DNA from: Rhodococcus sp. OK302
GTDB lineage: Bacteria; Actinomycetota; Actinomycetes; Mycobacteriales; Mycobacteriaceae
DNA: 64,000 nt
NCBI RefSeq assembly: GCF_002245895.1
Contig: NZ_NPJZ01000001.1
Span: 2,144,501 to 2,208,500 of the forward strand
Direction of reading: 5' to 3'
Shown: positions 12,798 through 48,396 of the stretch, piece after piece
How positions within the stretch are numbered: position 1 is the first letter of the stretch
How the letters are laid out: each line of letters begins with the position of its first letter
The notes under the pieces: generated by a model
Told to the model about the DNA's origin: nothing
Seen by the model: only the letters and a program-made list of their open reading frames with translations
Database searches by the model: none
Program-made: the position numbers and the translations under genes

Positions 12798-13430
12798 ATG
12801 ACTACGCGCGTGTTCCTGGTCGACGATCACGAGATCGTCCGGCGTGGACTGTTCGATCTACTCGGCGGCGTCGAGGATTTCGAGGTGGTCGGTGAAGCGT
12901 CGTCGGTACGGGAAGCCATGGCTGTGATCCCACAGCGCAACGTCGACGTCGCGGTCCTCGATGTGCGACTGGCCGACGGCAACGGCGTCGAGTTGTGCCG
13001 TGACCTCCGGTCGATGCTGCCGGATCTGCGGTGCCTGATGCTGACGTCGTATGCCGACGACGAAGCCCTGCTCGACGCCATCATGGCCGGCGCTTCGGGG
13101 TTTGTGCTGAAGCAGATACTGGGCACGGATCTTGTTGCGGCAGTGCGCACTGTGGGTCTGGGTGGTTCCTTGCTGGACAGCCGGGCCACCGAGGCATTGA
13201 TGCAGCGCATCCGTAGCGAGCGCACGGCTGACCCCTTGGCCGAACTCTCCGATCAGGAACGTGCGGTGTTCGACCTCATCGGGGAGGGGCTGACCAACCG
13301 CGAGATCGGCGCCCGACTCTTCTTGGCGGAGAAGACAGTCAAGAACTATGTGACGCGACTGCTCTCGAAGTTGGGTATGCAGCGCAGAACTCAGGCCGCA
13401 GTACTGGCTACCGAGCTGCGAAGCAAGTAG
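12798..13430 (+). CDS. devR: NarL/LuxR-family response regulator, DosR (DevR)-like
   Basis: A 210-residue response regulator. The receiver domain has acidic residues D9/D10, phospho-acceptor D55 ([13 protein letters not shown]), switch T83 and conserved K105. The C-terminal LuxR-type helix-turn-helix includes [21 protein letters not shown] and ends [14 protein letters not shown]. The long identical stretches to Mycobacterium DosR, especially around [14 protein letters not shown] and the recognition helix, make this assignment stronger than a generic NarL call. DosR activates dormancy genes in response to hypoxia, NO and CO. Its probable partner kinase is encoded head-on, one base beyond its stop codon. 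Confidence 0.88.
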
Positions 13431-13431
13431 C

Positions 13432-15102
13432 TCAAGGTCTCTCGCGTCGCAGCGGCACCCGCCACACCAAGCGGGTGCCCTGCGGTTCGCGGTTGCCGAT
13501 TGTGCAAGTGCCACCACAGTGTTCGGCACGTCGTTCCAGATTGTGCAGCCCGCTTTTATGTACGCCCTCGGGGATGCCGTTGCCGTCGTCGTCGATGGTG
13601 ATCGCGAATTCGAGATTGGCAGTCACCGAGATGGTGATGGTGTCGGCCTGCGCATGACGCAGCACGTTGCTCAGACCCTCGCGGAGCACTGCTTCGGCAT
13701 GCGGATGGATGCCGGCCTTGACCAGCGTGTCGATAGCACCGGAGAACTGCACACTCGGCGTGACAGCCGATTGTGCTGTGGCGTCGGCGATTACGTCGAG
13801 GAGGCGTCGACGCAAGCTTGTCGAGTCGGCGGTGGCCGGTGTCTGGAGATCGAAGATGGTGGTGCGGATTTCACGGACCGTCTGGTCCAGTTGCTCGAGC
13901 GACCTGGTGACGATGGCGCGTGCGGAGGCCGGGAGGCTCGAATCCGGCAGGGTGCTCTGCAGGCTCATCCCACTGGCAAACAGGCGCTGAATGACGTTGT
14001 CGTGCAGATCGCGGGCAATGCGATCGCGGTCTGCGAGCACCGACAGTAGGCGTTGTCCGCGTTGTTTGCGATCGAATTCAATTGCCACGGAGCCTAGCTC
14101 GGCCATCGATTCGATTCGAGTGAGCTCGTCCGGCTCCCACATCGTGTTTGTGGAATCAGAGGCGATCAGAAGTGCGCCCACCACGCCTGACGCAATGGTC
14201 ATCGGTGCAAGGACGGCGCTGACGGCCGTGGGGACCAATTCCGCTACAGCTCCGAGGTCCGTGAAGACCTGCACCTTGTGCGTTTGCCGAATAATGTTGA
14301 AAGGGTATGTGCCTGCCGGAATTCGCACTCCCCGCGAAGTGGGTCGAGCACTGGCGGCAGTGTGGACCTGAGCGTAGCCGTCTTCACAGATGACCACGAT
14401 GACGTCGTCGGCGCCCGTCAGGTCGCGGACGCGAGTGGCGAGAAGTTGCAGGCCGTCTTCGAGGGAGTCGCCGGCCAGCAATCTCGTCCGTACGGCTGAC
14501 ATTGCGGTGAGCCATCTTTCGCGGGTCCGAGACTGTTCGAACAGGCGAGCGTTCTCGGCCGCCATTCCGGCTGCGATGGCGAGGGCCTCGAGAATGACCT
14601 CGTCTTCTTCGGTGAACTCTGCAGCGCCGCGCTTCTCGGTGAGGTAGATACTGCCGAATACCTCGCCGCGCATCATGATCGGTGCACCCAGGAAGCTGTC
14701 CATCGGAGGGTGATTGGCAGGAAAGCCGACAGATTCCGGATGCGCACCCAAATGTGGGACTCGCAGCGTCTTAGGATCGTTCATGAGGACACCGAGCACA
14801 CCGTGGCCCTCCGGGAAGTGTCCCATCGTTTGCCGCAGGGGTTCATCGATGCCCTCGTACACGAACTCGGCCAGGCCGCCGCCGCACGCACGCACGCCCA
14901 ATGCTCCGTACCGGCAATCCAATACGGTGGTTGCTGCCGTGATGATGCGCTGCAAAGTCAGATCGAGATCGAGACCGGAACCGACAACGAGAACGGCTTC
15001 GAGAAGCCGGTGGAGCGTCGGGATATCGGCGTCGGTCTGAGCAAGTCGCTCCAGTACCTCACCGAAAGTTCGTGTCGGACTGTGGCCCGAAGAATCGATC
15101 AT
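13432..15102 (-). CDS. devS: GAF-GAF histidine kinase, DosS (DevS)-like gas/redox sensor
   Basis: A 556-residue cytosolic kinase. GAF-A spans about 40-190 and GAF-B about 205-345. A HisKA_3 segment with phospho-acceptor His367 (RIARDLHDNVIQRLFA) follows, then an HATPase domain with DDDGNGI. GAF-A retains the GFPANHPPMDSFLG segment; its His131 aligns with the proximal haem ligand His149 of mycobacterial DosS, and LYLTEK is matched by IYLTEK. It should therefore bind haem and sense O2, NO or CO (inference). In M. tuberculosis dosR-dosS is one operon. Here the kinase is convergent with the regulator, with a 1-bp gap. Confidence 0.88.
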   Translation of the reverse strand: MIDSSGHSPTRTFGEVLERLAQTDADIPTLHRLLEAVLVVGSGLDLDLTLQRIITAATTVLDCRYGALGVRACGGGLAEFVYEGIDEPLRQTMGHFPEGHGVLGVLMNDPKTLRVPHLGAHPESVGFPANHPPMDSFLGAPIMMRGEVFGSIYLTEKRGAAEFTEEDEVILEALAIAAGMAAENARLFEQSRTRERWLTAMSAVRTRLLAGDSLEDGLQLLATRVRDLTGADDVIVVICEDGYAQVHTAASARPTSRGVRIPAGTYPFNIIRQTHKVQVFTDLGAVAELVPTAVSAVLAPMTIASGVVGALLIASDSTNTMWEPDELTRIESMAELGSVAIEFDRKQRGQRLLSVLADRDRIARDLHDNVIQRLFASGMSLQSTLPDSSLPASARAIVTRSLEQLDQTVREIRTTIFDLQTPATADSTSLRRRLLDVIADATAQSAVTPSVQFSGAIDTLVKAGIHPHAEAVLREGLSNVLRHAQADTITISVTANLEFAITIDDDGNGIPEGVHKSGLHNLERRAEHCGGTCTIGNREPQGTRLVWRVPLRRERP

Positions 15103-31455: not shown

Positions 31456-32367
31456 CTACATGGCAGCTAGCGGTTCGCTGCCCGACCAGTCATGGCCCCA
31501 GTAGCTGTCTGCCGTGATCTCCTCGGCGGAGTACGAATCCTGATCGACCGTCATACCGTCGGTGCCGAACTCGATGTCCCAGCCGCCGGGAGCGCGGACG
31601 TAGAACGAGACCATCTTGTCGTTGGTGTGTCGGCCCAGAGTGGAGGACACCGAGAAACCGTCCTTGACTACTCGGTCCAGGGCCTGGCCGACGGCATCGA
31701 GGGTATCGACCTCGACCATGATGTGAACCAGACCCGGTGCGCCGCCGTGCGGGGCGGGGCACAGCGCCAAACTGTGGTGACGCTCGTTGACGCCCATGAA
31801 ACGAACACGCATCGGACCGTATTCCGGCGGCGCGGGAATGCGGAAGGCGCCGCGCGGATAGAAGCCGAGAACCTCGGTGTAGAAGTCGAAGCTTGCGGCG
31901 CTGTCCATGACCGGAAGCACCACATGGCCGAGACCCTGTGCGCCGGTGACAAATCGAGCACCGAACGGTGTCACGACGGGGCTGTGGTCGAGAACTGCAC
32001 CGTGGAAGATCTCGATGGTGGCGCCGCCGGGATCGGTGAAGGTGACTACCTCTTCGACTCGTCGTGCATCGGCTTCTGCGAGGGAAAGCTGTTCGACGGC
32101 AGTGCCGAACTTCTCCAGAGCAGCCTGTACGCGTCGCAGCGCCGCGTGGTCGGCGACCTCCCAGCCGATGCTGACGATCTCGTCGCGCTCACCCTCGACG
32201 ATGACGATGCGGGCAGCGCGCTCGTCGAGGCGCAAGTACAGTGCGTTCTCGTCCGGTCCACTGCCCTTGGCGAAGCCCAGGACGTCGAAAGCGAAAGTGC
32301 GCCAGCGTGCCATGTCATTGGTCGAGATCTTGACGTAGCCAAGTCCCTTGATATCGGTGTGTGTCAT
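31456..32367 (-). CDS. hsaC: Extradiol dioxygenase HsaC (3,4-DHSA 4,5-dioxygenase)
   Basis: A 303-residue type I extradiol dioxygenase with two vicinal-oxygen-chelate domains. The iron ligands are visible as His148 (GLGHVVLPV), His215 (GLVHIMVEV) and Glu266 (WDIEFGTDG), with second-sphere His198 and Tyr256. It cleaves the catechol ring of 3,4-dihydroxy-9,10-secosteroid. It follows hsaA by 16 bp in an operon. BphC-type biphenyl dioxygenases are close relatives, but the linkage to hsaA and kshA supports the steroid assignment. Confidence 0.9.
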   Translation of the reverse strand: MTHTDIKGLGYVKISTNDMARWRTFAFDVLGFAKGSGPDENALYLRLDERAARIVIVEGERDEIVSIGWEVADHAALRRVQAALEKFGTAVEQLSLAEADARRVEEVVTFTDPGGATIEIFHGAVLDHSPVVTPFGARFVTGAQGLGHVVLPVMDSAASFDFYTEVLGFYPRGAFRIPAPPEYGPMRVRFMGVNERHHSLALCPAPHGGAPGLVHIMVEVDTLDAVGQALDRVVKDGFSVSSTLGRHTNDKMVSFYVRAPGGWDIEFGTDGMTVDQDSYSAEEITADSYWGHDWSGSEPLAAM

Positions 32368-32383
32368 CGTGTGTGTCTCCTGG

Positions 32384-33565
32384 TCAGATCATGGCCCGCA
32401 GCGGACCCTGCGGGTCGGCGCCGAGGCGGCTCAGTGAGGCAGCGTGAAATACGGTGCCGGGGACGTGAATTGCGTGGTGCTGGCCGGCATGGGCGTCGCG
32501 CCAGAAGCGCTGCAGTGGCTTGTCCATGCGCAGCGCGTTTCCGCCGCAACGGGGGTAGACCTGATCGATGGCATTGATGGCGCGCCAGGCGGCCTGAACC
32601 TGAGTCTGGCGTCCTTCGGCGCGCTGCTCGAACGTCACTTCCTTGCCGGCGTCCACGCGATCCCACATGCGGTCCACGTTGGCCAGCAAGGTGTCTCGCG
32701 CAGCGCGGATATCGGCAGTGGCCTGGCCGATGGCGAACAGCGTGTACGGGTCATCCTTGATTGCGGTGCCCTGGGCATTGATGCGATCAGCCTGATATTC
32801 GTTGGCGTGGAACAGCATTCCCTCGCAGATGCCGATGGTCGCGGCGGTGATGCCGAGGGGGAACATGTTCGACCACGGCATCAGGTACAGCGTTTCGGTG
32901 CGTCCGTACTTGCGGACGGCCGTACCGTCGATGACCTCGTCACAATCCATCACGCGGTAGTCGGGGACGTAAGCATCCTTGACCACAAGGTCTTTCGAGC
33001 CCGTGCCGCGCAGACCCATGACATCCCACGAGTCTTCGATGATCTGGTAGTCGGTGCGCGGAATGATCACGTGCAGCATGCGGGGCGGCATCTCCATGTT
33101 GCCGTCCTTGTCGGCGGCCATGGCGCCCAGGAATGCCCAATCACAGTGATCGGTGCCGGACGAGAACTGCCAGCGGCCGGAGAACTTGTAGCCACCATCG
33201 GTGGGGATGCACAATCCGCCGGGCATGTAGGGCGACGCCATCCAGGTATCCGGGTCGGATCCCCAGATTTCCTGCTGCACCTTCGGATCGGCAAATGCCA
33301 ACTGCCACGGGTGAACTCCGACGATTCCGTGGACCCATCCTGCCGACGGATTCAGTGATGCCGTCCGCATCACCGTTTCGGCGAACTCACGCGGATGCGC
33401 TTCCATTCCGCCGTATTCCTTGGGCTGCAGCATCCGGATGGATCCGGCTGCCTTCATCTTCTTGGCAGTGTCGTCCGCCAAGCGGCCCAGCTTCTCGGCT
33501 TCGACGCCCTCCGCGAAGAGGTCGTCGGCCATCAAGTTGACCTGTTCGAGTACTTCGTACGTCAT
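32384..33565 (-). CDS. hsaA: 3-HSA hydroxylase oxygenase component, HsaA
   Basis: A 393-residue flavin-dependent monooxygenase of the acyl-CoA dehydrogenase fold (group D). Characteristic stretches are LQPKEYGGMEAHPREFAETV, FSGRWQFSSGTDHCDWAFLGA near 130 and DSWDVMGLRGTGSKDLVVKDAYVP near 180. With reduced flavin from HsaB it hydroxylates 3-hydroxy-9,10-secoandrostatriene-dione to the catechol. It is the middle gene of the kshA-hsaA-hsaC unit. No hsaD hydrolase gene lies between hsaA and hsaC, unlike the M. tuberculosis order. Confidence 0.92.
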   Translation of the reverse strand: MTYEVLEQVNLMADDLFAEGVEAEKLGRLADDTAKKMKAAGSIRMLQPKEYGGMEAHPREFAETVMRTASLNPSAGWVHGIVGVHPWQLAFADPKVQQEIWGSDPDTWMASPYMPGGLCIPTDGGYKFSGRWQFSSGTDHCDWAFLGAMAADKDGNMEMPPRMLHVIIPRTDYQIIEDSWDVMGLRGTGSKDLVVKDAYVPDYRVMDCDEVIDGTAVRKYGRTETLYLMPWSNMFPLGITAATIGICEGMLFHANEYQADRINAQGTAIKDDPYTLFAIGQATADIRAARDTLLANVDRMWDRVDAGKEVTFEQRAEGRQTQVQAAWRAINAIDQVYPRCGGNALRMDKPLQRFWRDAHAGQHHAIHVPGTVFHAASLSRLGADPQGPLRAMI

Positions 33566-33607
33566 CTGTGTCCCTGTGTCTTTCGCTGGATCAAGAGAGT
33601 GGTTGGA

Positions 33608-34783
33608 TCAGGAATTCGACTCGAGCGCCAGAGCTTCGCGTGCCGCGACGTTCTCCTCGACCTGCTTCCGCCAATTCGCAACTGCCCGGGTGGTGTCGAT
33701 CTCGAACTCGAAACGCTTCGTCATGTCGTCGGTGACGTCTTCGATGTCGGTGTAGAACTGGCTGTACCAGCGACGCATCTGATAAACGGGGCCGTCCTCC
33801 TCGGAGAGCAGCGGATTGTCGATGGGGGCCTTGTTCTTCCAGATCTCCACGTCCTGAAGGAATCCGCCTTCGATTCCGTCGGTGAACTGCGCAGCCATGT
33901 CGGCGGCTTCCTCGTCGCTCATGCCTGGCATCTTCTTGACCATCGCGCCGTACTGCAGCACAAACGCATTGTTCGAGATCGGGTAGTGGCAGTTGATCAA
34001 GACCGTCTCCACGACCCCTCCGTCGACTTCCTGCTTGATCCAGTCGATCATGTACGACGGACCGAAATAGGAGGCGTCCGAACGAAGTACAGCATTGGGA
34101 TCGGCGTAGCTGGTACCCATGTCCTGGACGTCCTCGCGTCCCACCGATTCCATGTACTGGCTGGCGATGTGGCCTTCGAAGATGTTCTTGAAGTATCTCG
34201 GGAAGGAGAAGTGGACGTAGAAGAAGTGGGCCATGTCCACCACGTTGTCGACGATCTCGCGGCAATGCGATCCCTCGATGGAGAGGGTGTTCCAACTCCA
34301 GTCGGACCATTCGCCATCCCCGAAACCCTCGATATCGGGGATCGTGACCTCAGCGGGTGGGGGATTTCCCTGCGGATCGTTCCAGACGAACAACTGGCCG
34401 TTCTTCTCGAGCGTCGTCCAGGCGCGGGTCTTCGCCAGTGGCGGAACACGTCGTGCGTACGGAATGTCCGTGCACTTTCCGTTGCCGCCCCAACGCCAGT
34501 CGTGGAACGGACACGCAATCGAATTGCCCTTGACCGTGCCCTGCGCGAGATTGCCACCCATATGGCGGCAATAGGCGTCGAGGATCTTGATATCGCCCTT
34601 CGAATCGGCGAACACGACCAAGCTGGTGCCGAAAATGTCGATCTGATGCGGCTTACCGTCGCGGTACGTCCTACTGAGCCCGAGGCAATGCCACCCCCGC
34701 GCGAATCGTTCTGGGGCGGCGGCCGCTTCGATTTCTCGAATTTCTTCGTCCGCTGTCGTGGGTGAGTCCGTGCCGAGTGACAT
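33608..34783 (-). CDS. kshA: 3-ketosteroid 9-alpha-hydroxylase oxygenase, KshA
   Basis: A 391-residue Rieske non-haem oxygenase. The [2Fe-2S] ligands are Cys72-x-His74 and Cys91-x2-His94 (YCRHMGG and CPFHDWRW). The mononuclear iron site lies in EIVDNVVDMAHFFYVH, with Asn180, Asp183, His186 and His191. It opens the steroid B ring by 9-alpha-hydroxylation together with a KshB reductase, which is not encoded nearby. It leads the operon with hsaA (42-bp gap) and hsaC. The upstream region has the palindrome at 34821-34836. Confidence 0.93.
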   Translation of the reverse strand: MSLGTDSPTTADEEIREIEAAAAPERFARGWHCLGLSRTYRDGKPHQIDIFGTSLVVFADSKGDIKILDAYCRHMGGNLAQGTVKGNSIACPFHDWRWGGNGKCTDIPYARRVPPLAKTRAWTTLEKNGQLFVWNDPQGNPPPAEVTIPDIEGFGDGEWSDWSWNTLSIEGSHCREIVDNVVDMAHFFYVHFSFPRYFKNIFEGHIASQYMESVGREDVQDMGTSYADPNAVLRSDASYFGPSYMIDWIKQEVDGGVVETVLINCHYPISNNAFVLQYGAMVKKMPGMSDEEAADMAAQFTDGIEGGFLQDVEIWKNKAPIDNPLLSEEDGPVYQMRRWYSQFYTDIEDVTDDMTKRFEFEIDTTRAVANWRKQVEENVAAREALALESNS

Positions 34784-34808
34784 GTCTTCCTCCGAGCCGC
34801 GCCTGACG

Positions 34809-34845
34809 ACGCTTCAGTAATGTGATCCATCACATAGAAGCGTCA
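34809..34845. promoter_or_regulatory. Nested inverted repeats upstream of kshA (candidate operator)
   Basis: The inner palindrome ATGTGAT-CC-ATCACAT occupies 34821-34836. Outer arms GACGCTTC (34809-34816) and GAAGCGTC (34838-34845) pair as well. The whole lies 25 bp upstream of kshA and beyond the end of the FMN dehydrogenase gene. It resembles a CRP or GntR-type site but has a 4-bp core between TGTGA and TCACA, not 6. Confidence 0.55.
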
Positions 34846-34907
34846 GGGCGTAGCTGCGGATACGGGTTCTCCCGCTGGATGGAACGATGGTGCTCTGGTG
34901 CGGTATT

Positions 34908-36095
34908 TCAGGTGCGTCGGAGAACATGTGAGCGGTCGAGTTCGGCGATGCCACTCAGCCCCATGAGGGTCAAAGTCCGGGAGATCTCCTCCCGGAAGAT
35001 CTCGAGAACATGCGCGACACCGTCTTCGCCGCCGGCTGCCAATCCGTAGACGTACGGGCGGCCGATGCCGACGGCGCTCGCTCCCAGGGCAAGCGCTTTC
35101 ACTACGTCGCTGCCACGTCGAATTCCGCCGTCGAGGTATACCGGAACTCCGTTGGCGCCGCCCACCCGATCGACCACCGCCGGCAGCGCTTCGATGCTCG
35201 ACAGCGCGCCGTCAAGTTGTCGCCCACCGTGATTCGACACCACGATGCCGTCGGCGCCCAATCGAACCGCCGTTGCGGCGTCGTCGGGATCGAGAATGCC
35301 TTTGACGTACATCGGACCGTCCCAGAGGTCGCGGATTTTCTCTAGATCACTCCAGCAGAGTTCCGGACGGAGAAGGCTCACCTGTTTTTTCGCCGACCGC
35401 ACTGCGGCGGCTGCGCCCCGTTCGTCGACGAGCATGCGAGACGAGATCCGCTGGTGCTTCAGGAAGTTGTAGGCCCACTGCGGTTTGCGGGCCGCATCGA
35501 GCATTCGCGACGGTGAGAGTGTGGGCGGAATTCCCATGCCGCGCTTACGTTCCCCTTCCCGATTCCCGGGTACGGGTACGTCCACGGTGACAAACAGTGC
35601 GCTGTACCCGGCTGCGGCGGCGCGGTCGACGAACTTCTTGGCCAACGATTCTCCGGTGCCGGCATTGGTCCACGGGTAGAGCTGGAAGAAATGGTCTTCG
35701 GATGTGGCGTCCGCGATCTCCTCGACGGTGTAACTCGACGCGGTGGAGATCACTGCGCGAGTGCCCACACGTTCCGCTGCCCGAGCTGCAGCGCGCTCCC
35801 CGGTCCAATGGACGAGACCGGTCATTCCGGTGGGGGACAGGAAGACTGGTAGGTCCAGCGCCGTGTTCCCGACCTTGATAGCGAGCCCCCGGCCGTCATT
35901 TCCCGTCAGTACCCGTGAACGAAGTGACCACTTGTCGAAATCGTCGACGTTGGCTCGCATCGTCACGTGGTCTTCGGCGCCGCCGTCGACGTATGCCCAG
36001 ATCATTCCGGGAAGCGCACGACGCGCACGTTCTCGGTAGTCGGCGACGGTGATCGGTGACGACTGTGAGGACATGCTGAACTTGATCGCAGACAT
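34908..36095 (-). CDS. FMN-dependent alpha-hydroxy-acid oxidase/dehydrogenase
   Basis: A 395-residue member of the lactate oxidase / glycolate oxidase / mandelate dehydrogenase family (TIM barrel, FMN). SPTGMTGLVHWTGERAAARAAE, IVSNHGGRQLDGA with the catalytic His and VYLDGGIRRGSDVVKALALGASAVGIGRPY (flavin phosphate site) are all intact. It oxidises an L-2-hydroxy acid to the keto acid; substrate and electron acceptor are unknown. Start ATG at 36095 or 36074; neither has a strong ribosome site. It lies upstream of kshA and could supply a side function in the steroid region. Confidence 0.85.
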   Translation of the reverse strand: MSAIKFSMSSQSSPITVADYRERARRALPGMIWAYVDGGAEDHVTMRANVDDFDKWSLRSRVLTGNDGRGLAIKVGNTALDLPVFLSPTGMTGLVHWTGERAAARAAERVGTRAVISTASSYTVEEIADATSEDHFFQLYPWTNAGTGESLAKKFVDRAAAAGYSALFVTVDVPVPGNREGERKRGMGIPPTLSPSRMLDAARKPQWAYNFLKHQRISSRMLVDERGAAAAVRSAKKQVSLLRPELCWSDLEKIRDLWDGPMYVKGILDPDDAATAVRLGADGIVVSNHGGRQLDGALSSIEALPAVVDRVGGANGVPVYLDGGIRRGSDVVKALALGASAVGIGRPYVYGLAAGGEDGVAHVLEIFREEISRTLTLMGLSGIAELDRSHVLRRT

Positions 36096-39287: not shown

Positions 39288-39351
39288 CCTGTGCGCCTTT
39301 TTGGTAGTTGGACCTACCGAAAAGGCGCACAGGGGGCGAAGCCCCCTGTGG
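39288..39351 (+). terminator. Double hairpin after the sulfatase gene
   Basis: The first stem pairs CCTGTGCGCCTTTT (39288-39301) with AAAAGGCGCACAGG (39320-39333). A second overlapping palindrome, CACAGGGGGC-GAA-GCCCCCTGTG, occupies 39329-39351. The two share bases and are mutually exclusive. The first belongs to the dispersed TGTGCGCCTTT family. Confidence 0.75.
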
Positions 39352-39434
39352 AACCTGTTCCAGTTGTGTGCAATTCTGATTACCAAATGCGTGACTGGCA
39401 CCACATCTCACCGCGCCGAGCCGAAGGAATCCAG

Positions 39435-41009
39435 ATGACAGACGAGTACGCTGACCTGCACCGACCGGTCTACGGTCCGGACCTGCTTATCACTGCCCTG
39501 GAAATGAACCACGACAAGCCTGCGCTCTACATCGGCGATGTCGTGCTGACAGGCGGCGAGATGCGAGATCAGATCAGTTGCTTCGCGCAGGCGCTCGCAT
39601 CGCTCGGAATCACCCAGGGCACCAGCACCGCGATGTTGTCCAAGAACCGCCCCGAGGTTCTCATCAGCATGGGTGCCACGATGATCACCGGTTGCCGAGC
39701 GACTGCCCTCAACCCGATGGGCTCGCTCGACGACCACACGTACATCGTCGACGACGCCGAGATCGAAACGCTCATCTTCGACTCCAACAATTTCGAGGCT
39801 CGGGCGGCCGAACTGAAGGCGTCGTCGCCTTCGATCACCCGATTCCTGTCGATGGGCCCGTCCGAAGTAGGCATCGATATTCTCGCTCTGGCAGCGACTT
39901 TCGAGCCCGCACCGCTCAAGGCTGCGCATGTCGACGCCGAAGGCCCCAGCAGCATGGTCTACACCGGCGGCACCACGGGCAAGCCCAAAGGCGTCATGGG
40001 AACGTTCCGTTCCGGCGCGGCGCTCAACCAGATCCAGATGTCGGAATGGCAGTGGCCTGAGGAAAATCGTTTCCTCATCTGCACCCCGCTTTCGCATGCC
40101 GGTGCAGCGTTCTTCACGCCCACCCTCCTGCGCGGCGGCGCACTGATCGTCCTCCCGGCCTTCGAGCCCGGTGCAGTTCTGGAAGCGATCGAGAAGTACA
40201 AGATCACCGCAACCATGTTGGTGCCCACCATGATCTACATGCTCATGGATCACCCGGATCTCGAAAAGCGTGACGTCTCCAGCCTGCAGACGATGTTCTA
40301 CGGTGCATCTGCGATGTCGCCGGCGCGCTTGCAGGAAGGCATCAAGAAGTTCGGTCAGATCTTCTTCCAGTTCTACGGCCAGAGTGAGTGCGGCATGACC
40401 ATCTCGGTGCTGCGCAAGGAAGAGCACCTCGTCGACGATCCGGAGCGCCTCGCCACCTGTGGCCGTGCGGTGCCGTGGCTCGACGTGCGACTCCTCGACG
40501 ACGACCTCAACGAGGTGCCGCAGGGTGAACTCGGTGAGATCTGCGTTCGTGGTCCCCTCGTCATGAAGGGGTACTGGAAGAAGCCCGCCGAGACAGCCGA
40601 AGCCTTCCGTGGCGGTTGGTTGCACACGGGCGATATTGCGCGGAAGGACAAGGACGGCTTCATGTCCATCGTCGACCGCAAGAAGGACATGATCGTCACC
40701 GGCGGATTCAACGTCTTCCCCCGCGAGATCGAGGACGTCATCTCGGCGCACCCGTCCGTCGCTTCCGTGGCCGTAGTCGGCGTGCCCGACGAGAAGTGGG
40801 GCGAAGCCGTCAAAGCGTGCGTCGTCCTTCGCGCTGGTCTGACCGTGGAGACCGAAGAGTTGGTGGAACGGGTCAAGGCAGCAAAGGGTTCCGTTCACGC
40901 ACCCAAGAGCATCGACTTCGTGGACAGCCTGCCGCTCACTCCGCTGGGCAAACTCGACAAGAAGGCACTGCGCGCGCATTACTGGGAGGCCCAGGCCCGC
41001 GCGGTCTAA
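39435..41009 (+). CDS. AMP-forming acyl-CoA synthetase (FadD type)
   Basis: A 524-residue adenylate-forming ligase. The ATP-binding motif is SMVYTGGTTGKPKG near 178, the A5 motif is QFYGQSECGM near 317, and the A7-A8 region is GWLHTGDIARKDKDGFMSIVDRKKDMI followed by GGFNVFPREIE. The final catalytic lysine lies in PLTPLGKLDKKAL. It activates a carboxylic acid as its CoA thioester. Context suggests a steroid side-chain or ring-derived acid. The frame is open to 39291 through the preceding hairpin; ATG at 39435 after GAAGGA is the start. Confidence 0.88.
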   Translation: MTDEYADLHRPVYGPDLLITALEMNHDKPALYIGDVVLTGGEMRDQISCFAQALASLGITQGTSTAMLSKNRPEVLISMGATMITGCRATALNPMGSLDDHTYIVDDAEIETLIFDSNNFEARAAELKASSPSITRFLSMGPSEVGIDILALAATFEPAPLKAAHVDAEGPSSMVYTGGTTGKPKGVMGTFRSGAALNQIQMSEWQWPEENRFLICTPLSHAGAAFFTPTLLRGGALIVLPAFEPGAVLEAIEKYKITATMLVPTMIYMLMDHPDLEKRDVSSLQTMFYGASAMSPARLQEGIKKFGQIFFQFYGQSECGMTISVLRKEEHLVDDPERLATCGRAVPWLDVRLLDDDLNEVPQGELGEICVRGPLVMKGYWKKPAETAEAFRGGWLHTGDIARKDKDGFMSIVDRKKDMIVTGGFNVFPREIEDVISAHPSVASVAVVGVPDEKWGEAVKACVVLRAGLTVETEELVERVKAAKGSVHAPKSIDFVDSLPLTPLGKLDKKALRAHYWEAQARAV

Positions 41010-41096: not shown

Positions 41097-42272
41097 TCAG
41101 CCGGTGATCGGGCACACGCCCTTCTTCGCTTTGGTTACGAAGTTGGGGCGGATGTCGAGATCGGGCTCGTCGTACAGGCGATGGAACGTCGGAGTAAGTG
41201 AGCTGGACATCGGTGGATTGACCCACGACCAGTCCGTCGGGCAGGTGCGGCCGGCTTTGTCCTCGCGGGCGATGTGATCGATGAATTGTTTTGCGACAGT
41301 GTGATGGTCGACCATGATGACGCCGGCCTTGCGGTAGCTGTGGATAACTGCGCGGTTCAATTCGACCAGCGCGCGGTCCTTCCACAGGGTGCGATCGGTG
41401 CTCATGTCGAGCCCCAAATGCTGTGCGACGGTAGGCAGCATGTTGTAGCGATCAGTATCGCTGAAGTTGCGGGCGCCCACTTCGGTACTGACGTACCAGC
41501 CGCTGAACGGGGTACACGGGTAGCGGATTCCGCCGATATCGAGGTCCATGTCCGCTACAGCGGGAACGGCGTGCCATTTGAGGCCCAGGTCAGCGAACCA
41601 CGGATAGTCGGGATGCTCGATATCGACTTCGAGAACCACATCGGTGGGTACGTCGAAGTACTGGAGCGGCTCGTCGGGAACCGAAATCAGAACTGGGAGA
41701 ACGTCGAACGGAGTTCCGGCACCCTTCCAACCCATGGCGGTAACCTGAGCAGTCAGATCGACATGCCACGGATCACCCAGAATTGTGCCGTCGTCACGAA
41801 GGTATCCGGCATAGCGGATCAGTTGCGGACTGAGAATGCGGTACTCCTGGCCGTCTTCGCGCGGCAGTGGGCCGACGGTGACCACCGACTGCAGAGCGCC
41901 CCCGTTCGTCGAGACACGCAGGTGCTCCCAGCATGCTTCGGCCAGAGCAGCTGCCGTCACAGCGCCCCGGGCGTCGAGCAGCTTGAGGGTGCGCCAATGT
42001 GCGCGTCCGACGCATCGCGCATGATTCCGCCACGCAAGTTTTGCGCCGATAAGAATCTCCTCGGCGGTCTGTCGGTACGTTCCGGTTCGATGTAGCTCGC
42101 GCAGCACGTCACGCCGACGCGATGTCGGAAGGTGACTCAGCTCCGGTGAATCGAAGAACTCCACACATTCGAGCTCTCGTCGTTGCAGGTCGGTCAGCAC
42201 CGGTGGAGATGAAACGAGTGGCGAAGCGGGCGTGCTACCTATTGGCAACTCGTCCTGTCGAACAAAATCCAC
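41097..42272 (-). CDS. nos: Bacterial nitric oxide synthase oxygenase
   Basis: A 391-residue NOS oxygenase domain that would convert L-arginine to citrulline and NO. The haem ligand Cys87 lies in LAWRNHARCVGR, a family hallmark. The arginine-binding Glu264 is in PFSGWYVSTEVGARNF. IMVDHHTVAKQF, DRYNMLP and the C-terminal DWSWVNPPMSSSLTPTFH follow the conserved order around the pterin site. There is no fused reductase, as in Bacillus and Streptomyces enzymes, so electrons must come from another flavoprotein. Three flavin/NAD(P)H proteins of the flavohaemoglobin family lie directly beside it. GTG at 42272 follows AGGAG. Confidence 0.95.
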   Translation of the reverse strand: MDFVRQDELPIGSTPASPLVSSPPVLTDLQRRELECVEFFDSPELSHLPTSRRRDVLRELHRTGTYRQTAEEILIGAKLAWRNHARCVGRAHWRTLKLLDARGAVTAAALAEACWEHLRVSTNGGALQSVVTVGPLPREDGQEYRILSPQLIRYAGYLRDDGTILGDPWHVDLTAQVTAMGWKGAGTPFDVLPVLISVPDEPLQYFDVPTDVVLEVDIEHPDYPWFADLGLKWHAVPAVADMDLDIGGIRYPCTPFSGWYVSTEVGARNFSDTDRYNMLPTVAQHLGLDMSTDRTLWKDRALVELNRAVIHSYRKAGVIMVDHHTVAKQFIDHIAREDKAGRTCPTDWSWVNPPMSSSLTPTFHRLYDEPDLDIRPNFVTKAKKGVCPITG

Positions 42273-42508
42273 GGCACGACTCCTGTTTGACTGGTTGGGA
42301 TTTCGCTGGACGGTAGCTCAACGGTCGAGCGTGTCGAAACCCATGCTTATTTTGCACGCCGGATCGAAAAAGGGACGGTCGTACCGAAAAATTGGTAGTG
42401 ACGTGTGACATATCCGGCCAATTATTTACGAGTTGGACACTTGTGGCATAAGCTGCACTCGGAATATTGCGGCTGGTCTGCCGCGAAAAATCGGGACGAG
42501 GACGAGCT
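42273..42508. promoter_or_regulatory. Divergent promoter region between nos and flavohaemoglobin 1
   Basis: 236 bp between the two divergent starts. GCTC-N7-GAGC lies near 42312, and a lower-GC stretch lies around 42340-42440. I see no convincing match to FNR, NsrR or DosR boxes. The two genes could share regulation from here. Confidence 0.4.
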
Positions 42509-43678
42509 GTGGATTCGCGAGCAATTTCTCTGGTCCGGTCGAGCTTCAAATCCATCGTCGCCGAAGAGGGCGGTCCGGAGCGGCTTGCCCGGACCTTCTA
42601 CTCGCTTCTTTTCGCCCGATCACCCGAAACTCGAGAGTTCTTTCCGGCCGCGATGGATGTGCAGCGCGACCGTCTGTTCACGGCCATCGGTTACGTCGTC
42701 GAAAACCTCGACGAGTCCGGCGAGATGCTCGAGTACCTCGCTCAGTTGGGCCGGGATCATCGCAAATACGGTGTGACCGACGAGCACTACAACGATGTCG
42801 CAAACTCGATGATCGAGGCGTTCGAATTGTTCGGCGGCGCCGAGATGTGGACCGAGGAAGTCGACAGTGCCTGGCGCAACACTCTGTCCGTGATCGGTGC
42901 AGCGATGACAGATGCCGCCAACGCCGCGGACGGGCCACGCGCGTGGACGGCCACGGTGATCGAAAGTCGAGCCGTCATCAAGGGAGTTGCGATAGTGCGC
43001 CTGCAGCTCGATCAGCCGATGGACTATCGGCCAGGCCAGTACGTCAGCGTCCAGGTAGCTGCAAGACCACGGATGTGGCGGTATCTCTCGCCGGCCAATC
43101 CGTCGGACGGATCGGGGATCGTCGAATTCCACATCCGGCATGTGTCCGGCGGCTGGGTCAGCCCGCCTATGGTCAACCAGACCGCCGTCGGCGATACGTG
43201 GGTGATCGGTTCGCCGATCGGTGCGCTCGGTCTGCCGGAGAACATCCGTGACCTGCTGATGATCGGGTCGGGTACCGGTCTCGCGCCGCTTCGCGCGCAG
43301 ATCCTCGAACTGATTCGTCGCGGCAACACCCGCAGGGTTCACCTGTTTTACTCCGGTCAGTACCCGTGCGACCTGTACGACCTTCCGTTTCTGTGGACGC
43401 TCGCCGAAAAGCACTCCTGGCTCACAGTCATTCCGGTGTCGGAAGAAGGCTCCAACCCGTGGTGGCATACCGAACCCGAACCGTTACCTCCACTGGGATT
43501 TCCCGAACGCATCACCGGCAAGGTCGGCAAGGTCGTCACGTCCTACGGCACGTGGTCGGGTCACGACATTCAGTTGGTCGGGAACGAATCGATGGTGAAC
43601 AGCACCAAGTTTCGACTTCGGGCGGCCGGGATCGACGTGGCAACTGTCCGCAGTGACCCGACCTACGGCGTTCAGTAG
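42509..43678 (+). CDS. Globin-reductase fusion, type II flavohaemoglobin-like (FHb1)
   Basis: A 389-residue protein with a globin domain (about 1-140), an FAD domain (about 145-245) and an NAD domain (about 250-380). The proximal haem ligand is His84 (LGRDHRKYGV), with an aromatic FF pair at the CD1 position near 44-45. FAD binding is through YRPGQYVSVQV and RMWRYLSPA; the cofactor-binding turn is IGSGTGLAPLRAQI. The LGRDHRKYG form matches type II flavohaemoglobins of Mycobacteriales, whose NO dioxygenase activity is debated. GTG at 42509 follows GAGGACGAG. It is divergent from the NO synthase and overlaps the next gene tail-to-tail by 7 bp. Confidence 0.9.
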   Translation: MDSRAISLVRSSFKSIVAEEGGPERLARTFYSLLFARSPETREFFPAAMDVQRDRLFTAIGYVVENLDESGEMLEYLAQLGRDHRKYGVTDEHYNDVANSMIEAFELFGGAEMWTEEVDSAWRNTLSVIGAAMTDAANAADGPRAWTATVIESRAVIKGVAIVRLQLDQPMDYRPGQYVSVQVAARPRMWRYLSPANPSDGSGIVEFHIRHVSGGWVSPPMVNQTAVGDTWVIGSPIGALGLPENIRDLLMIGSGTGLAPLRAQILELIRRGNTRRVHLFYSGQYPCDLYDLPFLWTLAEKHSWLTVIPVSEEGSNPWWHTEPEPLPPLGFPERITGKVGKVVTSYGTWSGHDIQLVGNESMVNSTKFRLRAAGIDVATVRSDPTYGVQ

Positions 43679-44418
43679 GGATCGAAGGCGATGATCTCGG
43701 CGGGGGTTCCCGTCGCAATCAGACGATCTCGCGTCGAACGCACCATTGCGGCCGATCCGCATAGCAACACCTGATGCTCGGTGAAGGCCCCGTACGACGC
43801 GACGACGTCGGCCAAGGTTCCTTCCACCAGATGGTCCTCGCCGAAACCGATATCTACACCGAGTCTTTCGAACCACTCGTCGGGTGGGCCGGCGTCGGTG
43901 AGGTCTTCGACCACGGGAATTGGTTGGAGCCAAGGAAATTGGTGAGCGAGCAACCACAGCATGTCTGCGGCGTACAGGTCGCGAAGGGTACGGCCACCGA
44001 AGAACAGGTACACCAGGGGCGGGTTCGGTGACTGTGCAAGATCGAGGATGATCGAGCGCATCGGTGCCAAACCTGTTCCGCCGGCGATCATCACGACCGG
44101 AGGGCCGTTCACGTCGACCGACAGATCTCCGCGGGGATCGAGAATCTGCCACGTGTCACCGGGTTGCGTGTCCTTCACGATCTTGCCGCTCACCCAGCCG
44201 CCGGGAACAGTTTTGACGTGGAACTCCATCTTCCCGTCTTGTGACGGCGGCAGCGCGGGGGACAGCCGGCGAAGCAGTCGTGAATTCTGCGGCACACTGA
44301 CGTCGACATATTGGCCCGGCCGGAACGGTACGACATCGCCGATCAGTCGAACGACAGCCAAATCCTCACGGAGGCGGTGATGTTCGACGACGGTGCTCGA
44401 CCAGGTTCGCTGGGCCAT
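43672..44418 (-). CDS. Globin-less FAD/NAD(P)H reductase related to the flavohaemoglobin reductase domain
   Basis: A 248-residue ferredoxin-NADP-reductase-fold protein with no haem or iron-sulfur domain. FRPGQYVDVSVPQ and LLRRLSPALP bind FAD, IAGGTGLAPMRSII is the nucleotide loop and VLLCGSAAMVRSTRDRL is the C-terminal signature. It aligns along its length with the reductase halves of the two neighbouring globin fusions. ATG at 44418 has an AGGAG site; the earlier frame lacks one. It follows FHb2 by 19 bp in an operon. A role as electron donor to the adjacent NO synthase is an attractive inference. Confidence 0.85.
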   Translation of the reverse strand: MAQRTWSSTVVEHHRLREDLAVVRLIGDVVPFRPGQYVDVSVPQNSRLLRRLSPALPPSQDGKMEFHVKTVPGGWVSGKIVKDTQPGDTWQILDPRGDLSVDVNGPPVVMIAGGTGLAPMRSIILDLAQSPNPPLVYLFFGGRTLRDLYAADMLWLLAHQFPWLQPIPVVEDLTDAGPPDEWFERLGVDIGFGEDHLVEGTLADVVASYGAFTEHQVLLCGSAAMVRSTRDRLIATGTPAEIIAFDPY

Positions 44419-44437
44419 GAGAGTGTTCTCCTGCTTG

Positions 44438-45616
44438 TCAGTAGAGCGGATCGTGCCGGATCTGGTCGATCGGAGTGCCGCCGGCGCGTAGTGCATAGAT
44501 CGTGGTCTTGATCATGGACGGTGAACCCGAAATCTGGATCTGGCGGTCCGCCCACGACCCGAACTGTGCCACGACCCTGCCGATGGGTCCTGTCAATCGA
44601 GAGTGCATTCCGAATGGTGGTTCGAGTACCGGGCCGTTGTGCCACCACGGATTTTCAGGTTCCTCCGACACCGGAACCACGGTCAGCCACGGATTGCTGA
44701 GCGAAATGTGCCACAGCGTCTCGAGATCGTAGAGGTCACACGGATAGCGTCCACCCACAAAGAGGTGGACCCGGGGATTGTTCGAGCGCTGCGCCATTTC
44801 CATCACCTGGGCGCGCAACGGTGCGATGCCCGTCCCACTGCCGATCATCAAAACGTCATGGTCGGAGGTGAAGTCGACCTCCAGACCACCGAGTGGGGTG
44901 GACATGACCCAACGATCACCGACATGGGTCTCGTTGACGATCGCCGGACTCACCCAACCGCCCGACACCTTGCGGATGTGGAATTCGAGTTGGCCGAACG
45001 GATTGGCCGGGATAGCGGGGGAGTAGTACCGCCACATCCGCGGGCGCTGCGGAATCTGAACTCCGACGTACTGACCGGCGCCGTACGGAATGGGAGGGTC
45101 GGTTTCGAGGCGCACGATCGCAAGATCGTCGAGCACCCGCTCATGACTGACGACGGTGCCGCCCCACAGCGCCGGCGTCGTATCGGACTCGGCGCCCTCG
45201 GACATCGTCTGTACGACAAAATCGGCGAACGCAGTCCAGGCTTCGTCGAGTTCGGGCGTCCACTTGTAGCGACTGTGCGAACTGGTCCCGTACAGGGAAC
45301 GTACAGCCCGCTTCAGTGCCGTACCGGCAGCCTCGTAGTGCTCACGCTCGACACCGTAGCGACGGTGGTCGAGGCCCAACTGCGTCAAAAATTTTCGAAT
45401 ACGCCGATGCTGGGCAAGATTGTTCACCGTGAATTGGATCGCGGTGAAGAACCTGTGACCTTGTGATTCCATTGCTGCGGGGAACAATGAGCGATACAGA
45501 GGATGTTCAGCAAAGAGAGCCGTATAGAACAGTGCCGAAAAATGCGCGCGAGACTCGTCGTCGTCGGTCAGTGCATCGAGGCTGGATTGCAGGCGGGCGA
45601 TCACCTTCGGATCCAA
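44438..45616 (-). CDS. Globin-reductase fusion, type II flavohaemoglobin-like (FHb2)
   Basis: A 392-residue paralogue of FHb1 with the same layout: globin to about 145 with proximal His84 (LGLDHRRYGV), then FAD (YGAGQYVGVQI, RMWRYYSPA) and NAD (IGSGTGIAPLRAQV) domains. TTG at 45616 after AAAGGGG gives MDPKVIARLQSSL, which lines up exactly with the FHb1 start; a TTG at 45655 is less likely. From memory it corresponds in position to Rv0385, beside clpB in M. tuberculosis. It is co-transcribed with the globin-less reductase. Confidence 0.88.
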   Translation of the reverse strand: MDPKVIARLQSSLDALTDDDESRAHFSALFYTALFAEHPLYRSLFPAAMESQGHRFFTAIQFTVNNLAQHRRIRKFLTQLGLDHRRYGVEREHYEAAGTALKRAVRSLYGTSSHSRYKWTPELDEAWTAFADFVVQTMSEGAESDTTPALWGGTVVSHERVLDDLAIVRLETDPPIPYGAGQYVGVQIPQRPRMWRYYSPAIPANPFGQLEFHIRKVSGGWVSPAIVNETHVGDRWVMSTPLGGLEVDFTSDHDVLMIGSGTGIAPLRAQVMEMAQRSNNPRVHLFVGGRYPCDLYDLETLWHISLSNPWLTVVPVSEEPENPWWHNGPVLEPPFGMHSRLTGPIGRVVAQFGSWADRQIQISGSPSMIKTTIYALRAGGTPIDQIRHDPLY

Positions 45617-45843: not shown

Positions 45844-48396
45844 GTGGACTCGTTCACACCAACAACCAAGACCCAGGCTGCGATGACGGCTGCACTGCAG
45901 TCGGCGTCGTCGGCCGGTAACCCCGACATTCGACCGGCACACCTGCTGGTCGCACTCCTCGATCAAACCGACGGTATCGCCGCCCCGCTGCTCAAGGCAG
46001 TCGGCGTCGACCCCACCGTCGTACATCGCGAAGCTCAGAACCTGGTGGATCGTCTGCCCAAGACCACCGGCGCAAGCTCCACTCCGCAACTGGGACGTGA
46101 AGCTCTCGCAGCGCTGACGTCGGCTCAGCACCTCGCCACCGAGATGGACGACGAGTACGTCTCCACCGAACACGTTCTGTACGGCCTCGCCGACAGTGAT
46201 TCCGACGTCGCAACGTTGTTGAAAAACCACGGTGCAACACCCGTCGCACTGCGTGATGCCTTCACGACCGTTCGCGGTAGCGCACGAGTGACCAGCCCGG
46301 AGCCGGAAGGCACCTACCAAGCGCTGGAGAAGTACTCCACCGATCTCACCGAACTCGCCCGCAGTGGCAAGCTCGACCCGGTGATCGGCCGCGACACCGA
46401 GATTCGTCGTGTCGTGCAGGTGCTGTCGCGTCGTACCAAGAACAACCCGGTACTCATCGGTGAGCCCGGCGTCGGTAAGACCGCGATCGTGGAGGGCCTG
46501 GCCCAACGCATCATCGCGGGCGACGTCCCCGAATCGCTGCGCGGAAAGACCGTCGTATCCCTGGACCTCGGGTCCATGATCGCCGGTGCCAAGTTCCGCG
46601 GTGAATTCGAGGAACGCCTCAAGGCTGTCCTCGACGACATCAAGAACAGTGCCGGACAGGTCATCACCTTCATCGACGAACTCCACACCATCGTCGGCGC
46701 GGGTGCCACCGGTGAATCCGCCATGGACGCCGGCAACATGATCAAGCCGATGCTCGCCCGCGGTGAGCTGCGATTGGTCGGTGCCACCACGCTCGAGGAA
46801 TACCGCAAGTACATCGAGAAGGACGCCGCACTCGAGCGTCGTTTCCAGCAGGTACTCGTCGGTGAACCCTCGGTCGAGGACACCGTCGGCATCCTGCGTG
46901 GACTCAAGGAACGGTACGAGGTGCACCACGGTGTCCGGATCACGGACTCCGCGCTGGTAGCAGCGGCTTCACTGTCGGATCGCTACATCACGTCGCGTTT
47001 CCTTCCCGACAAGGCCATCGACCTCGTCGACGAGGCCGCGTCCCGTCTGCGCATGGAGATCGACTCGCGCCCCGTCGAGATCGACGAGGTCGAACGCATT
47101 GTTCGACGTCTCGAGATCGAAGAGGTCGCACTCGAGAAAGAAACCGACGACGCATCCAAGGCGCGGCTGGACAAGCTGCGTCAGGAACTTGCCGACGACC
47201 GCGAAAAGCTCAATCAGCTCAGCACTCGCTGGCAGAACGAGAAGCAGGCCATCGACTCGGTGCGCGGGCTCAAGGAACAGCTCGAAACCTTGCGAGGCGA
47301 GTCCGAACGCGCTGAGCGTGACGGCGATCTGGGCAAGGCAGCAGAACTCCGATACGGCCGCATCCCGGCTTTGGAGAAGGAACTGGAAGAGGCAGCCCGG
47401 ATTTCCGGCGCAGCTTCCGACGGTGATGTCATGCTCAAGGAAGAGGTCGGGCCCGACGACGTCGCAGACGTAGTCGCAGCCTGGACCGGTATTCCGGCCG
47501 GCCGGATGATGGAAGGCGAAACAGAGAAGCTGCTTCGCATGGAATCCGAACTCGCCAAGCGTGTAGTCGGCCAGGTGGATGCAGTCACAGCGGTGTCCGA
47601 CGCGGTTCGACGCGCACGTGCAGGTGTCGCCGACCCCAATCGGCCCACCGGTTCGTTCCTGTTCCTCGGCCCGACCGGCGTCGGTAAGACGGAGCTCGCC
47701 AAAGGCTTGGCGGACTTCCTCTTCGACGACGAGCGCGCAATGATTCGCATCGACATGAGCGAATACGGCGAGAAGCACTCGGTGGCCCGACTCGTCGGTG
47801 CCCCTCCGGGATACGTCGGGTACGAATCCGGCGGTCAGCTCACCGAAGCAGTCCGTCGACGCCCGTACTCGGTGGTTCTCTTCGACGAGGTCGAGAAGGC
47901 TCACCCCGACGTCTTCGACGTATTGCTCGCAGTGCTCGACGAAGGACGGCTCACCGACGGTCAAGGCCGCACGGTGGACTTCCGCAACACCATCTTGATC
48001 CTGACCTCGAACCTGGGATCGGGTGGCAACAAGGAACAGGTCATGGACGCAGTACGCCGCGCGTTCAAGCCCGAGTTCATCAACCGTCTCGACGACGTGG
48101 TCATCTTCGATGCCCTGTCGGAAGAGCAGTTGGAGCACATCGTCGACATCCAGCTCGAGCAGTTGCAGAAGCGTCTGGCGATGCGTCGACTCACCCTCGA
48201 CGTCAACGGCAGCGCCCGGATGTGGCTCGCGGTACGCGGTTACGACCCGTTGTACGGCGCTCGGCCACTGCGCCGGTTGGTCCAGCAGGCCATCGGCGAC
48301 CAGCTCGCCAAGCTGCTCCTGGCCGGCAAGGTCCAGGACGGCGACACCGTGCATGTCGGTGTCAGCGAGGATGCAGATCAGTTGGTTCTGTCCTGA
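45844..48396 (+). CDS. clpB: ATP-dependent disaggregase ClpB
   Basis: An 850-residue Hsp100 chaperone. A Clp N-domain (1-140) precedes two AAA+ modules with Walker A motifs GEPGVGKT near 207 and GPTGVGKT near 610. The M-domain coiled coil (about 400-520) that distinguishes ClpB from ClpA/ClpC lies between them. [16 protein letters not shown] and the pore loop [14 protein letters not shown] are intact. It rescues aggregated proteins with DnaK. GTG at 45844 follows an AAAGGTG site. The HAIR element upstream predicts HspR repression. A terminator follows at 48431. Confidence 0.97.

What the first reader, a model, noticed from the sequence alone, without database searches (positions are those of the whole stretch)
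41097..45616. NO synthase clustered with two flavohaemoglobin-like fusions and a globin-less reductase
Four adjacent genes encode a NOS oxygenase (haem Cys87, Arg-binding Glu264, no reductase), two type II flavohaemoglobin-like proteins (both with His84) and one stand-alone FAD/NAD(P)H reductase of the same family. Bacterial NOS normally borrows electrons from unspecified reductases and has no dedicated partner. Here a complete set for making NO, feeding electrons and removing or sensing NO is packed into 4.5 kb. I infer a functional module, with the reductase as NOS donor and the globins as NO or NO-product processing enzymes. No nitration P450 of the TxtE type is present, so the NO is probably used as a signal or protectant.
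Basis: partly seen in the sequence, partly recalled or inferred. Interest (0 to 1): 0.75.

Follow-up and report, generated by a model that had tools for sequence, protein, structure and literature searches.

The report
NO synthase paired with partner globins
In these soil bacteria the gene that makes the signalling gas nitric oxide often sits next to the gene of a haem protein of a kind that handles the gas, in one lineage one such protein seems to have been swapped for another, and this suggests that maker and handler may work as a pair.

Summary
In detail: 41097-45616 holds an oxygenase-only NO synthase (NOS), two globin-reductase fusions (FHbA, FHbB) and a globin-less reductase (RED), in a relative of Rhodococcus erythropolis. 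RED, FHbB and FHbA form a block beside clpB that also stands without NOS: RED (58% identity or more) is in 27 of 28 genomes of the genus, including all 6 without NOS, so RED is unlikely to be a dedicated NOS donor. The NOS-globin link recurs. Of 22 NOS-bearing genomes of the genus, 10 have all four genes, 2 an FHbA-family gene only, 5 a truncated globin abutting NOS, 2 that globin about 5.5 kb away, 1 a broken copy, 2 none. In an order-wide sample 22 of 103 NOS loci have a globin gene as neighbour, with three globin kinds; 81 do not. The NOS carries the mammalian-type valine at the NO-release gate, as do 26 of 26 sampled NOS of its family and 10 of 96 others. Best reading: NOS plus an adjacent globin that consumes or meters its NO, a split counterpart of the cyanobacterial globin-NOS fusion. 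No activity was tested.

The parts
41097..42272 (-). NOS, oxygenase-only nitric oxide synthase, 391 aa, GTG start with AGGAG upstream; Cys87 haem ligand, Glu264, Val239 gate
   Evidence: Pfam PF02898 456 bits; invariants; Val239 against Ile of 2flq and, through relative L050, Val of eNOS chains; survey
42273..42508 (.). 236-nt head-to-head intergenic region between NOS and FHbA, with blocks conserved in the 10 genomes that have the full cluster
   Evidence: alignment of 10; DosR-like site 42372-42385 kept at 1 mismatch in only 5 of 20
42509..43678 (+). FHbA, globin + FAD/NAD(P)H reductase fusion of the non-type-I clade
   Evidence: Pfam; tree; residues
43672..44418 (-). RED, stand-alone FAD/NAD(P)H reductase, 248 aa
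   Evidence: Pfam; one orthologous family of 36 rows, 99/99
44438..45616 (-). FHbB, globin + reductase fusion, counterpart of the clpB-side fusion of relatives
   Evidence: Pfam; clpB synteny
45844..48396 (+). clpB, context anchor of the block
   Evidence: TIGR03346 over its cut-off
39291..41009 (+). acyl-CoA ligase, FadD8-like; lies directly beside FHbA in NOS-free relatives
   Evidence: NF004838 707 bits, under its cut-off of 875; synteny

Best explanation
A two-part NO unit, NOS plus the adjacent globin FHbA, next to an older redox block (RED-FHbB at clpB). NOS would oxidise L-arginine to NO; its Val239 gate predicts easier NO release than in Ile-type bacterial NOS. FHbA, divergent from NOS across one 236-nt region, would consume that NO, most likely by O2-dependent oxidation to nitrate with NAD(P)H electrons through its own reductase domain, and so set the NO level. 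RED and FHbB serve the globin side or another redox task that does not need NOS. NOS draws its electrons from general reductases as other bacterial NOS are said to do. Shown: gene content, orthology, linkage, residues, and trees that favour an old NOS-FHbA pair. Inferred: all activities, co-regulation, the direction of NO flow.
For: Linkage: 22 of 103 order-wide NOS loci have a globin gene as neighbour; in 20 the globin domain lies within 600 nt, and L067 and L121 have the fusion's reductase end facing NOS. In 1.63 Mb of these loci (window left out) there were 22 globin hits, of which 21 are those neighbours. Several forms: head-to-head FHbA in Nocardiaceae; NOS-then-fusion tandem, 112-129 nt apart, in 10 loci of genus g25; single-domain globin convergent (L074, L077, L098, and L245; L228 is probably the L077 locus again); truncated globin abutting NOS (L028, L034, L037, L042, L044) (Pfam check of examples). 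Swap: L045 has a fusion plus a 37-residue truncated-globin relic beside NOS. Trees: within one NOS branch (35 rows, 100/99) FHbA-linked NOS form the outer lineages and truncated-globin-linked NOS, with L045, one inner group (99/91); outer members of the FHbA clade are NOS-linked. Relic: L260 keeps a shortened NOS head-to-head with FHbA while that genome's full-length NOS lies elsewhere. Tyr B10, Phe CD1, Gln E7 and His F8 of E. coli Hmp are kept. Precedent: the syNOS globin oxidises NO to nitrate (PMC12922734, PMC9500659, passages).
Against: Lys F7 is Asp in both window fusions, and Glu H23 is not kept; mutation of Lys F7 incapacitates NO dioxygenase function of the E. coli protein (PMC3820574, passage). 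Type II fusions of mycobacteria have been given D-lactate and disulfide reductase roles (PMC8883573, passages). FHbA occurs at the same place without NOS in 11 fetched genomes of the genus. 81 of 103 order-wide NOS loci have no neighbouring globin, nor have 64 of 80 named loci, 19 of 19 Nocardia among them, so NOS can do without one. The genome holds a canonical Hmp-like protein 1.47 Mb away. Gate valine does not track the globin link: the globin-linked NOS of g25 have Ile. Branching order of the outer NOS and FHbA lineages is weak (84/82, 82/76, 81/83). No expression or activity data.
Confidence: 0.5

Rival explanations
1. RED is the dedicated NAD(P)H reductase of NOS and the four genes are one module.
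For: RED is near NOS in 10 of 22 NOS genomes of the genus, in A. stalagmiti, and as NOS<>FHbA-RED in 7 of the 80 named loci.
Against: RED (68-73%) is in all 6 NOS-less genomes of the genus and sits with FHb genes where NOS is elsewhere. RED shows no FMN or flavodoxin domain and groups next to the reductase domains of the fusions, whose relatives reduce globin haem.
Confidence: 0.12
2. FHbA feeds electrons to NOS through its reductase domain, and its globin acts as an O2/NO gate on that flow.
For: Where a fusion is linked to NOS in Rhodococcus, Rhodococcoides and Antrihabitans, the next neighbour is an FHbA-family gene, not RED; non-canonical F7 and H23 suggest changed electron routing.
Against: The truncated and single-domain globins found beside other NOS have no reductase domain; FHbA exists without NOS beside it.
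Confidence: 0.13
3. No functional coupling: NOS came to lie beside a conserved redox block and stayed there by descent; other neighbours are coincidence or a shared stress locus.
For: The block fadD8-FHbA-RED-FHbB-clpB stands without NOS in 11 fetched genomes, with fadD8 and FHbA 76-108 nt apart in the 5 gaps measured. 81 of 103 order-wide NOS loci have no globin neighbour. Near relatives make many of the 22 positives non-independent.
Against: Adjacency in several lineages with three globin kinds and different layouts, while the same 1.63 Mb held only one other globin hit; an apparent globin swap at one locus (L045).
Confidence: 0.2

Closest known systems
syNOS, globin-NOS fusion of Synechococcus PCC 7335 (PMC6104048, PMC12922734; passages seen)
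   Same: NOS and a globin act on the same NO; the globin oxidises NO to nitrate
   Different: one 1468-residue polypeptide with its own diflavin reductase; here separate genes, oxygenase-only NOS, globin carried on a reductase fusion
Type II flavohaemoglobins of mycobacteria (PMC8883573, passages seen)
   Same: actinobacterial two-domain fusions apart from type I; a fusion near clpB (0.1-3.7 kb) in 6 of 8 fetched g2 genomes, which I take to be mycobacteria
   Different: no D-LDH-type motif and no Cys pair in the reductase domain; linked to NOS, which those 8 g2 genomes lack
S. aureus NOS with flavohaemoprotein (mentioned in a passage of PMC6104048)
   Same: reported functional concert of NOS and a flavohaemoprotein
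   Different: I examined neither its gene order nor its partner type
Streptomyces coelicolor nitrate reductase-Fhb nitrogen oxide cycle (PMC4766573, passages seen)
   Same: actinobacterial FHb sets the endogenous NO level
   Different: NO is made from nitrate-derived nitrite there; from NOS here, if the reading is right
Thaxtomin/rufomycin-type nitration clusters (PMC10831120, passages seen)
   Same: actinobacterial NOS in a gene cluster
   Different: no P450 motif in the window and no biosynthetic genes directly beside NOS

Membership tests
Bacterial NOS (oxygenase only) | NO_synthase domain without reductase | tested here: met
Bacterial NOS (oxygenase only) | Cys haem ligand and substrate Glu | tested here: met
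   Cys87 and Glu264 invariant in 13
Bacterial NOS (oxygenase only) | Ile at the NO-release gate (stated for all bacterial NOS in PMC6104048, passage) | tested here: not met
   Val239; Val in 26 of 26 family rows and 10 of 96 others; in named loci 35 of 36 Nocardiaceae/Gordonia and 5 of 44 others. The stated rule itself fails, so this does not take the protein out of the family
Bacterial NOS (oxygenase only) | makes NO from L-arginine | not testable with these tools
   no assay
Type I flavohaemoglobin (NO dioxygenase) | reaches the NCBIfam cut-off of 432 bits | tested here: not met
   82 and 67 bits
Type I flavohaemoglobin (NO dioxygenase) | Lys F7 and Glu H23 (residue names recalled) | tested here: not met
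   Asp at F7; Ala/Gln or a gap at H23
Type I flavohaemoglobin (NO dioxygenase) | Tyr B10, Gln E7, His F8 | tested here: met
   against 1gvh; E7 rests on the profile alignment, MAFFT placed it otherwise
Type II flavohaemoglobin | two-domain fusion on a branch apart from type I | tested here: met
   100/100 split; mycobacterial proteins were not in that tree
Type II flavohaemoglobin | D(x)8GxxP in the reductase domain | tested here: inconclusive
   present in FHbA and FHbB, but in 59 of 73 non-type-I and 1 of 4 type I
Type II flavohaemoglobin | two Cys of the reductase domain conserved in mycobacterial type II proteins | tested here: not met
   only one Cys in each reductase domain; so I call them type II-like, not members
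Type II flavohaemoglobin | hexacoordinate haem | not testable with these tools
   needs spectra
syNOS-type globin-NOS | globin, oxygenase and reductase in one chain | tested here: not met
   separate genes

The most novel reading that the evidence does not exclude
Non-type-I (type II-like) flavohaemoglobins and small globins are the native, interchangeable partners of many actinobacterial NOS: a split arginine-to-nitrate or NO-metering unit in which the globin can be swapped while NOS stays, which would give the puzzling type II clade an original NO-related role.
Probability: 0.35. Interest if true: 0.75.

Novelty: new variant of a known kind. Interest (0 to 1): 0.55.

Why it matters
To my knowledge, what bacterial NOS is for, and what becomes of its NO, is poorly known outside a few Firmicutes and nitration pathways. 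A recurrent NOS-globin pair would name the likely NO sink for a group of soil actinobacteria, offer a possible role for type II-like flavohaemoglobins, and provide a separable version of syNOS that can be dissected gene by gene in harmless Rhodococcus strains. The valine gate contradicts the printed statement that all bacterial NOS carry isoleucine there (PMC6104048, passage), and predicts faster NO release, which would make a nearby sink useful.

Tried and rejected
RED as NOS-only donor: rejected as best reading because RED is in 27 of 28 genomes of the genus, the 6 NOS-less ones included, and stands beside FHb genes without NOS.

NOS-FHbA pair having replaced a different FHb at the clpB locus (my first idea, note): rejected; the tree makes the window-type FHbA and the NOS-free FHbA at that place sister groups, 98/98.

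DosR control: the window's only GGGACNNNNGTCCC match with up to 1 mismatch lies in the NOS|FHbA gap (3.9 expected by chance in the window). In that gap 1 of 200 shuffles did as well, but only 5 of 20 such gaps keep a match at 1 mismatch, and three upstream regions of stress genes in the window have none better than 2 mismatches. Rejected as a general feature. The consensus is recalled, not from a call.

Nitration cluster: no P450 motif in the window (regular expression only, ORFs of 200 aa or more).

Type I contrast: none of the 4 type I proteins in the fusion tree is NOS-linked, but 3 of them come from NOS-less genomes (G018, G020, G025), so this says little. What stands is that the 37 fusions within 3.5 kb of NOS in that tree (10 of them FHbB) all lie outside type I.

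MAFFT placement of E7 and E11 was shifted; I rely on the profile alignment to 1gvh.

Some contigs end near NOS (for example L194 and L196 hold under 1.6 kb on one side).

Not fetched or dropped: NOS places in G053, G072, G172 and G373:C3; G006's FHbA-RED-FHbB block was seen but not fetched; one row (an L149 fusion) dropped from the alignment; NOS rows of 230 residues or fewer left out of the 122-row set; duplicates L050, L051 and L169-L173 left out of the NOS tree. L169-L174, L183, L184 and L228 have the contig lengths of G023, G002, G022, G013, G021, G277, G007, G332 and G263, so they are probably the same genomes; named loci are not added to the G counts.
Full report
WHAT IS THERE. The window lies in a 6.79-Mb genome. 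Its nearest named relatives by NOS are Rhodococcus sp. IEGM 1379 (98%) and ARC_M6 (97%), then R. erythropolis and R. qingshengii (87%). Four genes fill 41097-45616: NOS(-), FHbA(+), RED(-), FHbB(-). NOS and FHbA are head-to-head over 236 nt, FHbA and RED overlap tail-to-tail by 7 nt, FHbB and RED are in tandem. clpB follows FHbB (TIGR03346 over its cut-off); a FadD8-like acyl-CoA ligase precedes NOS in the window, L040 and L041, while in the other seven genomes with the cluster further genes lie between.

RESIDUES. NOS keeps Cys87 and Glu264, invariant in 13 diverse NOS. At the NO-release gate it has Val239, aligned to Ile in the solved bacterial NOS 2flq and, through its relative L050, to Val in eNOS chains. 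Among 122 NOS rows, Val is present in 26 of 26 of the window's family and 10 of 96 others. Among the 80 named loci it is in 35 of 36 Nocardiaceae/Gordonia (L203 has Ile) and 5 of 44 others; the two sets overlap. PMC6104048 (passage) says that Ile is found in all bacterial NOS and that Val-to-Ile slows NO synthesis and release in iNOS; faster release here is my inference. Both fusions keep the distal Tyr B10, Phe CD1, Gln E7 and proximal His F8 of E. coli Hmp (residue names recalled), but have Asp at F7 and no Glu at H23. They score 82 and 67 bits against NCBIfam's NO-inducible flavohemoprotein, cut-off 432. The genome has one further F-type globin, a canonical Hmp-like protein with Lys F7 and Glu H23, 1.47 Mb away.

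GENUS. NOS is in 22 of 28 genomes. The 22 neighbourhoods: all four genes in 10; FHbA-family gene only in 2 (L038 head-to-head, L045 tail-to-tail); truncated globin abutting the NOS 3' end in 5 (L028, L034, L037, L042, L044); the same globin about 5.5 kb away in 2 (L036, L039); a relic of it split over two frames in 1 (L027); none in 2 (L029, L043). L045 is telling: a fusion lies beside a 37-residue end piece of the truncated globin next to NOS, as if one globin had replaced the other.

THE BLOCK WITHOUT NOS. RED at 58% identity or more is in 27 of 28 genomes (the exception, G016, is 74% complete), including all 6 without NOS. FHbB relatives at 60% or more are in 27 of 28. In 11 fetched genomes FHbA, RED and FHbB lie together with no NOS between fadD8 and FHbA: L149 and L150 from NOS-less genomes, nine others with NOS elsewhere; clpB and fadD8 flank all 11. 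In the four other NOS-less genomes (L153-L156) a more distant fusion takes the FHbA place. In the five gaps measured, fadD8 and FHbA matches are 76-108 nt apart. So RED and FHbB do not depend on NOS. RED is one orthologous family (36 rows, 99/99) next to the reductase domains of the fusions, which fits a globin partner better than NOS.

BEYOND THE GENUS. A named scan gave 80 NOS loci, the best of 587 found; 16 have an adjacent globin: 5 full clusters in Rhodococcus, Antrihabitans stalagmiti with the full cluster, R. oryzae with NOS-FHbA, 7 loci of the Rhodococcoides fascians/kyotonense/R. yunnanensis kind with NOS, FHbA and RED, and Catenuloplanes japonicus and Actinoplanes sp. RD1 with a convergent single-domain globin. 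64 have none, among them 19 of 19 Nocardia. In an order-wide sample NOS is in 85 of 397 genomes. I examined 103 NOS loci: 22 have a globin gene as direct neighbour, 20 with the globin domain within 600 nt and two (L067, L121) with the fusion's other end facing NOS. Ten are NOS-then-fusion tandems of one genus (g25). In 1.63 Mb of this DNA there were 22 globin hits outside the window, of which 21 are these neighbours and one (L083) lies 2.8 kb off. Near relatives inflate these counts, and the truncated-globin profile is narrow, so other truncated globins may be missed.

ANCESTRY. In the NOS tree (61 chosen rows) all FHbA-linked and truncated-globin-linked NOS sit in one branch of 35 rows (100/99), together with L182, L029, L043, L183, L045 and Gordonia asplenii. 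FHbA-linked ones are the outer lineages, though their order is weak (84/82); the truncated-globin ones and L045 form one inner group (99/91). In the fusion tree (77 rows) the outer members of the FHbA clade are NOS-linked, again with forks under 95. The 37 fusions within 3.5 kb of NOS (10 of them FHbB) all fall outside type I; none of the 4 type I rows is NOS-linked, but 3 of those are from NOS-less genomes. Antrihabitans stalactiti keeps clpB-FHbB-RED-FHbA with a shortened NOS relic head-to-head to FHbA (L260; matches NOS residues 6-245), while its full-length NOS is elsewhere (L182). The simplest account is an old NOS-FHbA pair, lost or moved in some lineages. In 6 of 8 genomes of genus g2 (taken to be mycobacteria; not named by the tool) the single fusion lies 0.1-3.7 kb from clpB, without RED there and without NOS in the genome, so the clpB-side fusion may be the oldest part.

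MECHANISM. I favour NOS as source and FHbA as NO consumer, most likely to nitrate. The main objection is Asp F7, since mutation of Lys F7 incapacitates NO dioxygenase function in E. coli (PMC3820574, passage). If FHbA lacks that activity, it may sense NO or route electrons instead.

PRIOR ART. Searches in the open PMC library listed, among the titles and abstract openings shown (lists capped at 10 to 20 papers), no paper on NOS-globin gene pairs in Rhodococcus or other actinobacteria. Subscription papers are mostly not held, and two papers cited for type II flavohaemoglobins could not be read. The nearest known system is syNOS.

Noticed in passing
window 12798-15102 with 9382-10275, 10369-11469 and 11859-12746: LuxR-type response regulator and a GAF-GAF histidine kinase beside two universal stress proteins and an F420-type oxidoreductase, like an O2/NO-sensing DosRS locus (resemblance recalled; domains).
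   Followed up: partly
window 31456-36095: KshA-like Rieske oxygenase, BphC/HsaC-like extradiol dioxygenase and a lactate-dehydrogenase-type FMN enzyme, probably part of an aromatic or steroid breakdown cluster.
   Followed up: no
window 41097-42272, residue Val239: Mammalian-type Val at the NO-release gate in 26 of 26 NOS rows of the family against 10 of 96 others, and in 35 of 36 named Nocardiaceae/Gordonia loci against 5 of 44 others.
   Followed up: partly
L260:6018-6593: Shortened NOS relic head-to-head with FHbA in Antrihabitans stalactiti, whose full-length NOS lies elsewhere.
   Followed up: partly
L045:9663-9773 and L027:10549-10750: Relics of a truncated globin beside NOS.
   Followed up: partly
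L046, L047: Second, partial NOS matches in G006 and G027, the first with a stop codon inside.
   Followed up: no
order sample, e.g. L064, L087, L124-L145: A second, shorter-matching NOS type (profile match ending near position 298-325 of 362), often as a second copy; no globin found nearby with my profiles.
   Followed up: no
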